This document shows, one piece after another, positions 47,546 through 52,871 of a stretch of 64,000 bases of DNA (its first letter is position 1; every line of letters starts with the position of its first letter). Where the stretch lies: contig JAAVVG010000009.1 of NCBI GenBank assembly GCA_012976225.1, positions 620,001 through 684,000 of the forward strand, given 5' to 3'. The notes beneath the pieces are model-generated. The model was not told the DNA's origin. It saw nothing but the letters and a program-made list of their open reading frames with translations, and searched no databases. The DNA comes from Golubevia sp. BC0850 (Eukaryota; Basidiomycota; Exobasidiomycetes; Golubeviales; Golubeviaceae). A program made the position numbers and the translations under genes.

Positions 47546-49386
47546 TTAAAGATAAATCCCCTCATCCTTCAAAGCTTCTCCACTAGTCATGATTTCACCT
47601 CTACCTTCTGCAATCCCTTCAAGACCTTTTCCAACCTGACCACCTCTTGCTTTCAAATTGGCAACGCATTCCAAAATGTAATCTTCGAACATTCCAGCGC
47701 AATCTTCTGGACCACCTGCATGTTCTGGATGGAATTGAACAGCCCAAACTGGAGACGGAGAATTGGGAGCTGTCGAAAAAAAAAATAGAAAAATGAATTG
47801 GAGAGTGGGAAAGGGGGTGGGATTTAGGGAGAGATTAGAACTCGTATCGACGGTCTCGAGTGTCTTCCTTCGATCGTTCCAACTTCTACTTTCTCTCTGA
47901 TCCTTTTTTCCAACCTTTATTCCCAACCTTCCTATCCTCTTATCTCCCACCATCCCAAAAGATACTCACGACTTCTAATGCCCTCAATACTTCCGTCATT
48001 AGCATTGACGAACCAAGGTTTCCAACCTCCTTGCCAACCACCATCTTTCTTATCGTGATCCCATTCCAAAGCATAACCATGATTTTGAGAGGTGATGTAA
48101 ACTCTACCAGCTTTGACAGAAGTCCCAGTTGAAGAAAGGGCGACTACAGGTTGATTATGACCTCTGTTACCGAATTTCATTCTGTAGGCTTTTAGACCTG
48201 CTGCGAGACCTATGATCTGAGGGAGGTGTGAAAAGAGGTAGAGAAAGCGAAAAAAGGTTAGAAGATAAAATGAGTGACAGAGAGTATGGGAGATTCAAGG
48301 GCCCTGGTTTCCTTATCTCTCCTTCAAAAGATTTCTTTTCTCCCTTTGCTTCCAGATTCTCTTCCAAGTTCCCCTTCGCTTCATGATTCCCCTTTCGACT
48401 ATTTGTTTTTCTTCATTACTCACTTGGTTTCCCATACAAATCCCAAAGACAGGTCTCTTCCATTGGTTCAAAACCTTCTTAGTGGTTTCAATAGCTTCAG
48501 GGATAGAATAAGGACTTCCAGGACCATTACTTAAAAACAAACCATCGAATTTATCTCTAACGTTTTCTTGAGCGAAGTTATAATCCCAAGGTAATACAGT
48601 GACTGAAACATTACATCTCAAAAGAGATCTCAAGATGTTAGCTTTACAACCGAAATCCAACAAAGCGATATTAGCTCTAGCATTTTCTTTACCACCTTTT
48701 GGATGAATTACAAAAGGTTGTTTAGTAGAAACCTTTGAGATAAGGTTTAAAGACATTGGATCTATGAAGCTTGATTTTTCAGGTGGGATTTCATGGTTTT
48801 CGCCAATTTTAATGGCACCTAAAGTAGAACCTTGATTTCTTAATAAAGTAGTTAAAGCTCTTGTATCAATTCCTGAAATCCCCGGAATGTTAAACCTTTT
48901 CAACCAAGAATCTAATGATTCAATGGCTTCGAAATGAGAATACCTATCACATAAATCTGAAACGATTACTCCAGAAGGTTGAGGTTTTGATGACTCTAAG
49001 AAACTTCCGACTTCTACATCAGATTGATTTCCATGAGGTGAAATTGATGAATAGGAACCTGATTTGTTTGAAGGGACACCATAATTACCTATTAAAGGTT
49101 GAGTGAAGGATAACAATTGACCTTGATAAGAAGGATCGGTCAAGGATTCTGTGTAGGAAGTGATTGAAGTTGTGAAAACAGTCTCCCCATAAACTGAGGA
49201 AGTTGAACCAAAGGATTTTCCTGGAAAGGAATGTCCGGATGATAAATGAAGAGTTGCTGGTTGTTGAGGTGCCATTTGAAGAGAAGTGTGAACTGCTGAA
49301 CTCCAAGTCTTGGAAGTTGAAAAGGATCGAATCAAATTGGAAGTACAGCGTGATGAAACACGTGGGATCGTTAAAAGTGAATTCAT
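47546..49386 (-). CDS. CPA1: Carbamoyl-phosphate synthase small subunit (CPA1)
   Basis: The glutaminase subunit of the arginine-specific carbamoyl-phosphate synthase, which makes ammonia from glutamine for the large subunit. Three exons (48424-49386, 47970-48216, 47546-47769) join in phase to 477 residues. The N-terminus is Arg/Ser-rich (RSFSTSKTWSSAVH), fitting a mitochondrial presequence. The CPSase small-subunit N domain follows (GHSFPGKSFGS, GIDTRALTTLLRNQG), then the class I glutamine amidotransferase domain with the nucleophile Cys in FGICMGNQ near residue 315 and the His/Glu pair in QFHPEHAGGPED. The residue after the nucleophile loop is Asn where many relatives have His. The 5' leader carries an intron-split upstream ORF resembling the arginine attenuator peptide, described separately. 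Confidence 0.97.
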
Positions 49387-49490
49387 ATTGGATAAGATTA
49401 GAGGAAGGTTGAGGACTTGAGTGCTACGGGATGTTTAGGATGAATTGGATTGGCTGGCTGATAAGGGATTTGAGTGGAATTGAGTTTAAT

Positions 49491-49727
49491 TCAAGCTTCT
49501 AACTGAGTTGATTTGAAGACTGCGTCACTACAAGCAGTAGTGTTCCGAAGGTTAAAGGGCAGCCAGAGAGGAAGAGTGAGTGGAGGAGGAAAGATAAGCC
49601 AAAGGAGGCAAGAGAAGGAAGAAAAAGAAGAAAAAGACCGCGTACCAACTGAAGGGCTATTAACTCACGAGATGTAATCCTGACTGGTTTGTGAAAGATA
49701 CGTTGAAGAAGTTAAAGATAATCGCAT
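49491..49727 (-). CDS. Upstream ORF: arginine attenuator peptide of CPA1
   Basis: An ATG at 49725-49727 opens a frame that crosses an intron (exons 49669-49727 and 49491-49527; donor ATCTC|GTGAGT, acceptor CTTGTAG|TGACGC). Spliced, it encodes 31 residues, ending about 104 bases before the CPA1 ATG. The core reads TSQDYISDAVFK. The known fungal attenuator peptides have the core T-[SC]-Q-D-Y-[IL]-S-D-H-[IL]-W (Saccharomyces CPA1, Neurospora arg-2), so seven or eight consecutive residues match, including the Asp that follows the splice junction. In those fungi the nascent peptide stalls the ribosome when arginine is high and lowers CPA1 translation. The ATG has a poor context (T at -3), which fits leaky scanning. 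Unspliced, the frame would stop right after DYIS. Confidence 0.88.
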
Positions 49728-49964
49728 CCAACAGGGTTGAGGAGAATCTAGAGAGTGATTCTATTTTGTAGGGATGATGATGACGATGATGGTGGTGGTT
49801 AGTGGTTGTCTCAAGCAGAGTCACTCGATCCAGCGATCCAGCAACGACCAGAGAGGACCGAAGCAGACCGAATCCATTCGCTGTGAACATGCACTCGTCC
49901 ATGGTGAACTTGCCACCAACAGAGTCAATCATTCAGTAGAGTTAGAATCCTCAGCACAGAAGAA

Positions 49965-52871
49965 ATGGATTCAACTCAAACGGAAGAGGAGAGGCAGACA
50001 GAAGATTTCTCTTCAGTGATACAGAGTTGGAGAGGTGAGTGGAGTGTAGTCAGTGTACCGGTCCCCACAGAGAGAGAGAGAGAGAGAGAGATTAGAGTCA
50101 AGAATAGTACAACAACCTGAATCAGCATGATAACCATAACCGTTATCCAACTCAACTCCTCCAACTTACCTTACCTTTCCCACCCTCCCCTCCCTCCAGA
50201 TCTATCACTCCCCTCTCTTCTACTCTCCCTTCGACCAATTTCAACTTCTCTACTCTCATCTCAAAAGACATCCCTTCAAGCCAGAAAGGCTCTAGCAGAT
50301 CAAACCAGAGAGTTCAAAAAGCAACCTGCTTCAGATCAATTGGAATCCTTCAAGCCTCTGTTGAAGAGCTATCAAGCTGAAATCGACAGTCTGACCAAGA
50401 GGTCTAAAGCTTCGGAGAATGCCTTTTTCGACGTCTTGGAGAAATTGGAAGGGGTTAGAGATCCTTTGAGAGCTTTGGAAGTCGTTTTGGTGAGTAGACG
50501 GGAGGGGGAAGGGGGAGGAGAGTGATTCGTAGAAGTCAGAACGAGGCTGGAGATTAACAAGGTTCTTGTTGAGTTGAAGCCTTTGAGCCATCACACGAGG
50601 TAGCTGTAGGATTTTCTGTTACTCTTTCAAGGCTTGAACAATCGATCTGAAGCCATTTCTCCCGACTTCTCTATCAGGATCAAGCCGCCTCTCTATCAGA
50701 ACTCTCAACTCTTCGCACTTCACAATCAAATCTCCTCTCAACCAATCAAACCCTAAAATCGACCAATCAATCCTTAAATTCAGAGATCCAAACCTTAAAA
50801 TCTCAATTGTCAGCAAAGAATTCGAGTCTAGATTCAGAAATCTCATCGAAATATGAAGCTAGGATCAAGAATTCCAAAGATCGCGAGCTTTCTTTAGAAG
50901 GTCTTTTAGCAGATAAAGAGGAGATTTTGAAAGATTTGAGAGAAAGGAATGAAAGCTTGACTCAGAAATTAGTGGGTCAACAAGATGGAGAAGCGACTCT
51001 AGGAGGGAATTCAGAAAATGAAAGAGAATGGAATATTGAAGAAATTATCAAGTTGAAAAATAGGAATTTGGATTTAGAAGTTCAAATTCATGGTTTTAAG
51101 GAAAGATTGGAAGGTTCTTTGGATTCTAAATTGTTGGAGAAAGAAAGGGAAAGTTGGAGAGTTAAGGAAGAAGAGTTTAAAATTGAGAAACAAGGTTTGG
51201 AAGATTTAGTAGAAGAGAAACAAAAATCTTGGGAGGAAGAGAAATCCAAATTGGAAGAAGAATTGAAAAAGGAGAAGAAGGTTGGGAAGGAAGGTGAAAG
51301 CGAAAGGAAAAGGTTGAAGACCCTTTTGGAAGAAAGGAAAGATTGGGAAGAAGTTAAGAGAGAGAATTTAGTTATGAGAATGGTTGAATTCAATATTGAA
51401 GATGAAGATGAGAAGTTGGAAGAAAAAGAAAAGATGGAAAAAGAAGTCAAGCCTTTGGAGGTTTTGTTGATTGAGAAGAATAGGAAGTTGGAAAAGGAAG
51501 TCACTGATTTGAGGGTGAGTTTCTTGTTTTTTTTTCCGGAGGCTCTGCATTGGATTACTTCTCCCTATGTATCGATTCAAGATTTGAACTCATCGAAAGT
51601 CTATTTCCTTATTCGGAATCTGTGTCCTCTTCTTCTCCCGCAAAATCACAGGTCTCAAATTCAACTCATCAAACCTCAAACATTTCAACTTCCTCAGAAC
51701 TCGAAAGCTTAAGATCTGAAGTTCAGAAACTTCGAACACTCAATGAGAAGTTGGAAGATGATTTGATCAACATTGATTCTTCAAATACCAATTCAAAGAA
51801 AGAAGATGGAGTCAAGGGATTTGATATCGATGGAACTGGAAATGAAATTCCAAAATCCCTTTCAACTTCAAATCCAAAAACAGAAACAGAAATGAGCGCA
51901 GAAGAAGCTTTAGCAGAACTTGAAAGCTTAAGTTCCAATCCTTTAAGAAAATCAAAACCAAGTTCAAATTCAACTTCCACTTCCAATCCTTCTTCCACTA
52001 AAAATCCCAATTCAACTCCTTCATCCTCCTCACTTCTTCCAATTCTTACTTCTCAAAGAGATCGGTTCCGTTTAAGAAATTCAGAACTTGAAGAAGAATT
52101 GAGAAAACAATCTTCTATCATTAGAGATTTGAGAGATGAAATCAAAAGATTGGGAACTGATAATCTTAGTCTTTATGAAAAAGTTAGGTATTTGAGTAGC
52201 TATAGAGAGGAGATTTCTAATCCCATGAGCGCAGGTGTTGATGGATTCAGAAGTATAAAAGTGGAAAACGGAATCAGGGCTAGAGAATATCCACCGAGTA
52301 AATCTCCTTCTGGAGCAGGTGGTGGTGGTGGAGTTGAAGATGGTTATAGGGAAAGGTATGAACAGAGTATGAATCCTTTTGAAGCTTTTAGAGGTAGAGT
52401 GAGTAGTTCTTTAAGTGTTTCTCTGATTCCTTCCAACTTTGGGTTGTTGAGTCGCCTCCATTTCTTTCACCCCGCCCCTCTCTTTCTCTATCTTTTCTAG
52501 GAACAAAATCGAGTTCTTTCGACTCTAAATCCTTTGGAAAGAATCCTTCATATGCTTACTCGATTGGTTCTTGGTCATAGAAGAATGAGATTGCTTTTCA
52601 TGGTTTATGCTGTAGTTCTACATCTACTTGTATTTGGAATGCTGATGGAAACTGGTTGGAGTAGGTGAGTTCAGAATCCAAGCTGGGTTTTGAGATGGTG
52701 AGGGAGGAGGAGAAGGTTCGTTGGCCAAAAGATTTGTTCTCACTGATACCTTGGTTCCTTTTCGCAATCCTTTTTTTTCTGACTGACAGTGCCTCTGCTC
52801 ACGAGCGGCTGACTCCGGTAGCAGCTCCCAATCCGCTGGGAGGTCTAGATGCAGTCAAATCTCCAGGATAG
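49965..52871 (+). CDS. COY1: CASP/COY1 Golgi coiled-coil membrane protein
   Basis: Six exons (49965-50034, 50200-50489, 50678-51514, 51652-52398, 52501-52664, 52790-52871) join in phase to 729 residues. CASP (yeast Coy1) is a golgin-type tether with a C-terminal tail anchor. Signs are the short acidic start ending FSSVIQSWR; the conserved N-terminal segment KALADQTREFKK then LLKSYQAEIDSLTKRSK; long heptad-rich coiled coil at about residues 120-540; the family motif NPFEAFRGREQNRVLSTLNP; and a C-terminal membrane segment (LLFMVYAVVLHLLVFGML) followed by a short lumenal tail. The first exon encodes only 23 codons and was placed by its donor GAGAG|GTGAGT and the family start. Intron 1 contains an (AG)11 repeat. 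It is divergent from CPA1; 237 bases separate its ATG from the CPA1 upstream ORF. Confidence 0.93.
50069..50090 (+). repeat. (AG)11 microsatellite in CASP intron 1
   Basis: Eleven AG units lie 35 bases after the donor of the first intron. On this strand the repeat is purine, so unlike the one at 21.8 kb it cannot serve as the polypyrimidine tract. Confidence 0.9.

What the first reader, a model, noticed from the sequence alone, without database searches (positions are those of the whole stretch)
49491..49727. Intron-split arginine attenuator peptide upstream of CPA1
Seen: a 31-codon upstream ORF, spliced in phase from 59 and 37 bases, with the core TSQDYISDAVFK, ends 104 bases before the CPA1 start. 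Known: ascomycete CPA1/arg-2 leaders encode an attenuator peptide with core T-x-Q-D-Y-x-S-D that stalls ribosomes in high arginine. Inference: this gene is regulated the same way, and the intron placed inside the SD codon pair could add a second control, since unspliced RNA encodes a peptide ending at DYIS. After SD the peptide differs from the classical H-[IL]-W, so it also tests which residues are needed.
Basis: partly seen in the sequence, partly recalled or inferred. Interest (0 to 1): 0.8.

Follow-up and report, generated by a model that had tools for sequence, protein, structure and literature searches.

The report
Likely arginine attenuator peptide, intron-split
In front of an arginine-synthesis gene of a smut-like fungus lies a tiny gene, interrupted by an intron, whose peptide resembles the known fungal peptide that stalls ribosomes when arginine is plentiful, but with an altered tail.

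Summary
On the minus strand, 49727-49669 joined to 49527-49491 encodes MRLSLTSSTYLSQTSQDYISDAVFKSTQLEA*, ending 104 nt before the CPA1 start (49386). CPA1 is a full CPSase small subunit; its tree places the fungus with Ustilaginomycotina (Basidiomycota), not Ascomycota. Of nine columns invariant in eight annotated ascomycete AAPs, the peptide keeps seven, including the whole core T-x-Q-D-Y-x-S-D; it loses the H and W that follow (A-V-F instead of H-[IL]-W), and its tail is two residues longer. It ranks first of 1496 candidate small peptides of the window on an AAP model. Its only Pfam match is PF08252 (arg-2/CPA1 leader), below the cut-off (13.3 against 18.5 bits). The intron looks real: its GTGAGT is the only GTRAGT donor in the 665 nt examined. 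It splits the core's Ser codon, so unspliced RNA encodes a peptide ending at DYIS. Most likely this is a working AAP-type attenuator with a divergent C-terminus. A CPA1 uORF discussed as AAP-type is already reported in a basidiomycete (Cryptococcus). Splicing as a second control is speculation. No fungal DNA for comparison was reachable, and neither splicing nor arginine response was observed.

The parts
49669..49727 (-). uORF exon 1, 59 nt (MRLSLTSSTYLSQTSQDYI + first two bases of the Ser codon); start context TGTTGG|ATGC, T at -3
49528..49668 (-). phase-2 intron, 141 nt, GTGAGT...TTGTAG, splitting the Ser codon of the core; unspliced frame stops directly after DYIS
   Evidence: sequence signals only; no RNA reads
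49551..49555 (-). branch-point-like TTAAC, starting 28 nt before the intron end
   Evidence: consensus match only
49491..49527 (-). uORF exon 2, 37 nt, including the TGA stop (DAVFKSTQLEA*)
49524..49688 (-). span of the core T-S-Q-D-Y-I-S-D (residues 14-21), interrupted by the intron
48424..49386 (-). CPA1 exon 1 (start context A at -3)
47970..48216 (-). CPA1 exon 2
47546..47769 (-). CPA1 exon 3 with stop
49660..49932 (-). other upstream frame (ATGs at 49932, 49902, 49890), unspliced extent; overlaps the uORF start and would compete if transcribed

Best explanation
This is a divergent arginine attenuator peptide uORF. After the 141-nt intron is removed, scanning ribosomes that initiate at the weak uORF start make a 31-residue nascent peptide. 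When arginine is high, its T-S-Q-D-Y-I-S-D core acts in the exit tunnel to stall the ribosome at or near the uORF stop, blocking scanning to CPA1 and probably favouring mRNA decay. When arginine is low, ribosomes terminate quickly or leak past the weak start and make CPA1. Shown here: the sequence, the splice signals, the core match, the gene identity and the start contexts. Inferred from known AAPs: splicing in vivo, stalling, arginine sensing, leaky scanning and decay. The intron is most likely a constitutive one that happens to interrupt the core.
For: The downstream gene is a glutamine-hydrolysing CPSase small subunit (TIGR01368, 382.9 bits against a cut-off of 307.35), the gene class that carries AAPs. 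Nine columns are invariant among eight annotated AAPs (S, T, Q, D, Y, S, D, H, W); the peptide keeps seven, including all six of the core and the Asp whose Asn mutant (D13N) abolishes regulation in yeast (PMC7969011, passages). PF08252 is its only Pfam match at E up to 10 among 24,736 models. An HMM of the eight puts it first of 1496 ATG-started peptides of the window (18.2 bits, E 8.7e-5; ranks 2-6 are other forms of the same ATG; best unrelated 3.6 bits), and 0 of 20,000 shuffles reach 18.2 (best 14.4). Of 22 distinct splice products of this ATG the proposed one scores best. Its donor is the only GTRAGT in the 665 nt 49300-49964 and equals the donors of 5 of 5 introns that I placed in CPA1 and the CASP-like gene (three supported by aligned homologues or a Pfam match across the joint, two placed by eye and frame). 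The native CPA1 uORF in two Cryptococcus species has strong ribosome occupancy, and the CPA1 homologue CND01050 rises 5-fold in upf1-delta (PMC7049704, passages). A review states that the position of the conserved residues does not affect function (PMC11550727, passages).
Against: PF08252 is below its gathering score (13.3 against 18.5), and two unrelated places of the genome score higher on it (16.1 and 15.3 bits, partial), though they match only the later part of the profile and show no QDYxS nearby. The eight ascomycete AAPs score 55.7-64.4 bits when left out of the model, against 18.2 here. H and W are lost; no HxW is encoded in 49300-49964 on that strand. The tail after SD is 10 residues, not 8. 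No DNA of a related fungus was reached, so conservation was not tested. Neither transcription start nor splicing was observed; a strong upstream ATG (49902) would interfere if it lies in the transcript.
Confidence: 0.83

Rival explanations
1. A decayed or altered attenuator: the uORF descends from an AAP and still lowers CPA1 translation as an ordinary uORF, but without H-[IL]-W it no longer senses arginine.
For: H and W, present in 8 of 8 annotated AAPs, are lost; the score is far below that of ascomycete AAPs (18.2 against 55.7-64.4 bits) and below the Pfam cut-off.
Against: The core and its frame across an intron are intact, which a decaying peptide would not be expected to keep; V and F are conservative replacements of I/L and W (judgement, no test).
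Confidence: 0.12
2. A splicing switch: arginine or another signal changes retention of the uORF intron, so that unspliced RNA makes a truncated peptide (ending DYIS) that cannot stall, adding a second control on CPA1.
For: The intron interrupts the core and retention puts a stop directly after DYIS.
Against: Splice signals look ordinary; the intron RNA folds no better than shuffles (z 0.38, 129 of 200 shuffles at least as good); a premature stop in retained RNA also fits simple decay; no expression data.
Confidence: 0.08
3. A chance resemblance: the leader contains no working uORF, or transcription starts downstream of it.
For: No transcript data; the weak start codon context; a sub-threshold Pfam score, with higher-scoring chance places in the genome.
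Against: The core in 1 of 3000 shuffled leaders and 0 of 200 shuffled windows; best of 1496 peptides; it lies at the one gene where AAPs occur, and the only GTRAGT donor of the leader makes the frame.
Confidence: 0.04

Closest known systems
Ascomycete arginine attenuator peptide (Neurospora crassa arg-2 uORF, Saccharomyces cerevisiae CPA1 uORF; Pfam PF08252)
   Same: uORF upstream of the arginine-type CPSase small subunit; core T-x-Q-D-Y-x-S-D with the critical Asp; basic residue (K/R) three positions later.
   Different: A-V-F replaces H-[IL]-W; tail after SD of 10 residues, not 8; 31 codons instead of 24-25 (seven of the eight; the eighth record is a longer partial translation); three more residues before the core; an intron inside the core Ser codon (uORF gene structures of the others were not compared); below the Pfam cut-off.
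Cryptococcus CPA1 (CND01050) uORF, a basidiomycete case
   Same: Same gene, same phylum; native uORF with strong ribosome occupancy, a repressed main ORF and an NMD-sensitive mRNA (PMC7049704, passages).
Toxoplasma gondii ApiAT1 uORF (arginine transporter)
   Same: Arginine-responsive uORF peptide with a critical Asp and some AAP resemblance (PMC8370653, passages).
   Different: Different main gene and lineage; its authors suggest convergence.

Membership tests
Fungal arginine attenuator peptide (AAP) | uORF in the leader of the arginine-type CPSase small-subunit gene | tested here: met
   uORF stop 104 nt before the CPA1 ATG; TIGR01368 above its cut-off
Fungal arginine attenuator peptide (AAP) | Core T-x-Q-D-Y-x-S-D | tested here: met
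   All six fixed core residues, invariant in 8 of 8 annotated AAPs, are kept
Fungal arginine attenuator peptide (AAP) | H-[IL]-W after the core (in 8 of 8 annotated ascomycete AAPs; whether it is required in general was not established here) | tested here: not met
   A-V-F instead; no HxW encoded in 49300-49964 on that strand
Pfam PF08252 Leader_CPA1 | Score above the gathering threshold (18.5 bits) | tested here: not met
   13.3 bits, E 0.056, the only Pfam family matched; yeast and Neurospora peptides score 58.8 and 56
Fungal arginine attenuator peptide (AAP) | Continuous frame in mature mRNA (here: intron removed) | tested here: inconclusive
   Consensus splice signals and a frame restored by the predicted splice; no RNA reads
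Fungal arginine attenuator peptide (AAP) | Arginine-dependent ribosome stall that depends on the core Asp | not testable with these tools
   Needs cell-free translation or ribosome profiling
Fungal arginine attenuator peptide (AAP) | Peptide conserved in relatives | not testable with these tools
   No fungal contig among the 2 viral-collection loci and the 80 listed genome loci, whose titles are bacterial

The most novel reading that the evidence does not exclude
An arginine attenuator that works without the H-x-W segment seen in all eight annotated AAPs found here, and whose ability to sense arginine is switched by splicing of an intron inside the core: spliced mRNA is arginine-repressible, intron-retaining mRNA is not.
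Probability: 0.08. Interest if true: 0.65.

Novelty: new variant of a known kind. Interest (0 to 1): 0.4.

Why it matters
It extends the sequence space of a classic nascent-peptide sensor. If the A-V-F variant still senses arginine, natural variation separates the T-x-Q-D-Y-x-S-D core from the H-[IL]-W segment, which would help to explain how a peptide in the ribosome tunnel recognises a free amino acid. It also adds a deep Ustilaginomycotina lineage, and it shows that uORF searches without splicing, or at the Pfam cut-off, can miss such leaders.

Tried and rejected
Searching predicted proteins with the window's own frame found nothing. With an alignment that included two ascomycete AAPs, eight annotated AAPs came back; by their organism names and recalled taxonomy all are ascomycete, but the query favours such sequences, because candidates must share 5-residue words with it, so this says little about how AAPs are distributed. 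No solved structure matched. A genome-wide PF08252 search (six frames, no introns) did not return this site; it gave two partial hits elsewhere (16.1 bits, E 0.36; 15.3 bits, E 0.635) and rang in 1 of 14 control genomes, all under the cut-off. One of the two reads ESDHIWK without QDY, and neither locus shows QDYxS, so I take them for chance. Rfam found nothing in the window at gathering scores. A structured regulatory intron: its fold is no better than shuffles. Alternative splices: 22 distinct products, none better than the proposed one. The word GTGAGT is only 1.7-fold over a first-order model in the window and eighth by excess, so the splice argument rests on the placed introns and on the single donor in the leader; of the five introns compared, I located the donors by eye, and only three joints (CPA1 introns 1 and 2, CASP-like intron 1) are supported by aligned homologues or a Pfam match across them. 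My first CASP-like start was off by two bases and was corrected. Hood et al. 2007, the main comparative study, was not held (one search used a wrong DOI), nor were five other AAP papers. I know Hood 2007 from its citation and the sentences that cite it, and do not claim that a basidiomycete AAP with an intron is unpublished. The ten paper searches listed no paper whose title or abstract start shows such a case; the strings QDYLSD and QDYISD gave no paper.

Full report
What is there. On the minus strand the window holds a uORF of 59 + 37 nt (49727-49669 and 49527-49491) around a 141-nt GT-AG intron. The spliced frame is MRLSLTSSTYLSQTSQDYISDAVFKSTQLEA*, and 104 nt separate its stop from the CPA1 start at 49386. 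The intron splits the Ser codon of the core (TC|T). Without splicing, a TGA follows directly after DYIS.

The gene. I placed CPA1 in three exons (49386-48424, 48216-47970, 47769-47546), a conceptual splice that aligns with its relatives. The 477-residue product matches TIGR01368 above its cut-off. Its start (MNSLLTIPRVSSRCTSNLIRSFSTS) looks like a mitochondrial leader by eye; no predictor was run. The genome has one other place matching PF00988, on contig C22, in a longer open frame; I take it for the pyrimidine enzyme but did not test that. In a tree of 28 CPA1 proteins the window groups with P0040, an unnamed relative (100/100), inside a set of 22 Ustilaginomycotina and unnamed rows that is separated 100/100 from six Agaricomycotina. 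Its position among the orders is unresolved, no Pucciniomycotina or ascomycete was included, and the group names are recalled taxonomy. Among the 120 best protein hits shown of 524, the best named ones are also of this group.

Is it an AAP? Eight annotated AAPs were found; by name all are ascomycete, as expected from a query built with ascomycete AAPs. Nine columns are invariant among them: S, T, Q, D, Y, S, D, H and W. The window peptide keeps the first seven, of which T, Q, D, Y, S and D form the core, and loses H and W. The Asp of QDY corresponds to yeast D13, whose Asn mutant abolishes arginine regulation (PMC7969011, passages). PF08252, the arg-2/CPA1 leader family, is its only Pfam match at E up to 10 among 24,736 models, at 13.3 bits, under the cut-off of 18.5. 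As controls, the two classic peptides score 56 and 58.8, 0 of 4 shuffles match PF08252 (one matches another family weakly), and the unspliced 20-residue peptide still gets 11.8 bits, so exon 1 carries most of the signal. With an HMM of the eight AAPs (P0128 trimmed to its Met), the peptide ranks first of 1496 distinct ATG-started peptides of 15-60 residues from the window, unspliced or with one intron (GTRNGY to YAG, 50-300 nt). It gets 18.2 bits; ranks 2-6 are other forms of the same ATG, and the best unrelated one has 3.6 bits. None of 20,000 shuffles reaches 18.2; the best is 14.4. The motif is not expected by chance here. Against this: the eight AAPs score 55.7-64.4 when left out of their own model, so the window peptide is distant. 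Two places elsewhere in the genome score higher on PF08252 (16.1 and 15.3 bits), but they match only the later part of the profile and have no QDYxS. The difference from known AAPs lies mostly after SD, where A-V-F-K replaces H-[IL]-W-[KR] and the tail is two residues longer.

Is the intron real? GTGAGT at 49668 is the only GTRAGT donor between 49300 and 49964 on this strand, a stretch that includes the first 87 nt of CPA1. The five introns that I placed in CPA1 and the divergent CASP-like gene all start with GTGAGT; I found their donors by eye, and three of the five joints are supported by aligned homologues or a Pfam match. A branch-like TTAAC starts 28 nt before the intron end; the same consensus was not found in one of the five other introns. 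Of 22 distinct splice products of this ATG, the one using these sites matches the AAP model best. I infer that the site is spliced; no reads were available. An intron at this place would also imply that transcription starts upstream of it.

Context. A CASP/CUX1-like gene starts on the other strand at 49965 (CUX1_N 115.1 bits, CASP_C 139.2 bits), so the two start codons are about 580 nt apart and the region left for the CPA1 promoter is short. The uORF start has T at -3 and CPA1 has A at -3, which fits leaky scanning. ATGs at 49932, 49902 (CACCATGG) and 49890 open a frame that overlaps the uORF start, and one at 49877 opens a short one. If the transcript begins upstream of them they would compete; this is unknown.

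Mechanism. By analogy with known AAPs the nascent peptide stalls the ribosome at the uORF stop when arginine is high and blocks CPA1, and the mRNA may be decayed (PMC7969011, PMC11550727, PMC6492140, passages). In Cryptococcus, also a basidiomycete, the native CPA1 uORF is strongly occupied, the main ORF is repressed, and the mRNA rises 5-fold in upf1-delta (PMC7049704, passages). A review states that function depends on conserved residues but not on their position in the peptide (PMC11550727, passages), so the longer ends need not matter. Whether A-V-F can replace H-[IL]-W is open. The idea that the intron is a second switch rests only on its position; the intron RNA does not fold unusually (z 0.38).

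Judgement. An AAP-type attenuator is the best explanation (0.83). It works like an AAP by inference, and its sequence suggests descent from one. It does not meet the Pfam cut-off or the H-x-W pattern, so I call it a divergent variant rather than a plain member. A CPA1 uORF of this type in a basidiomycete is not new. The A-V-F tail and the intron inside the core are the points of interest, and I could not check whether they are already described (Hood et al. 2007 was not held).

Noticed in passing
49386-49965: CPA1 and a CASP/CUX1-like gene are divergent, with start codons about 580 nt apart and 237 nt between the uORF ATG and the CASP-like ATG: a compact shared promoter region.
   Followed up: partly
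49877-49932: Four more upstream ATGs; the one at 49902 is in a strong context (CACCATGG) and its frame overlaps the uORF start codon.
   Followed up: partly
48568-48573: CPA1 has a two-residue insertion after F271 shared, among the 18 sequences aligned, only with the unnamed P0040.
   Followed up: no
50069-50091: A short (GA)n run lies in the first intron of the CASP-like gene.
   Followed up: no
L086 around base 1501 (G000:C6:416798-416821): A frame elsewhere in the genome reads ESDHIWKTK, like the second half of a classic AAP but without QDY; probably chance.
   Followed up: partly
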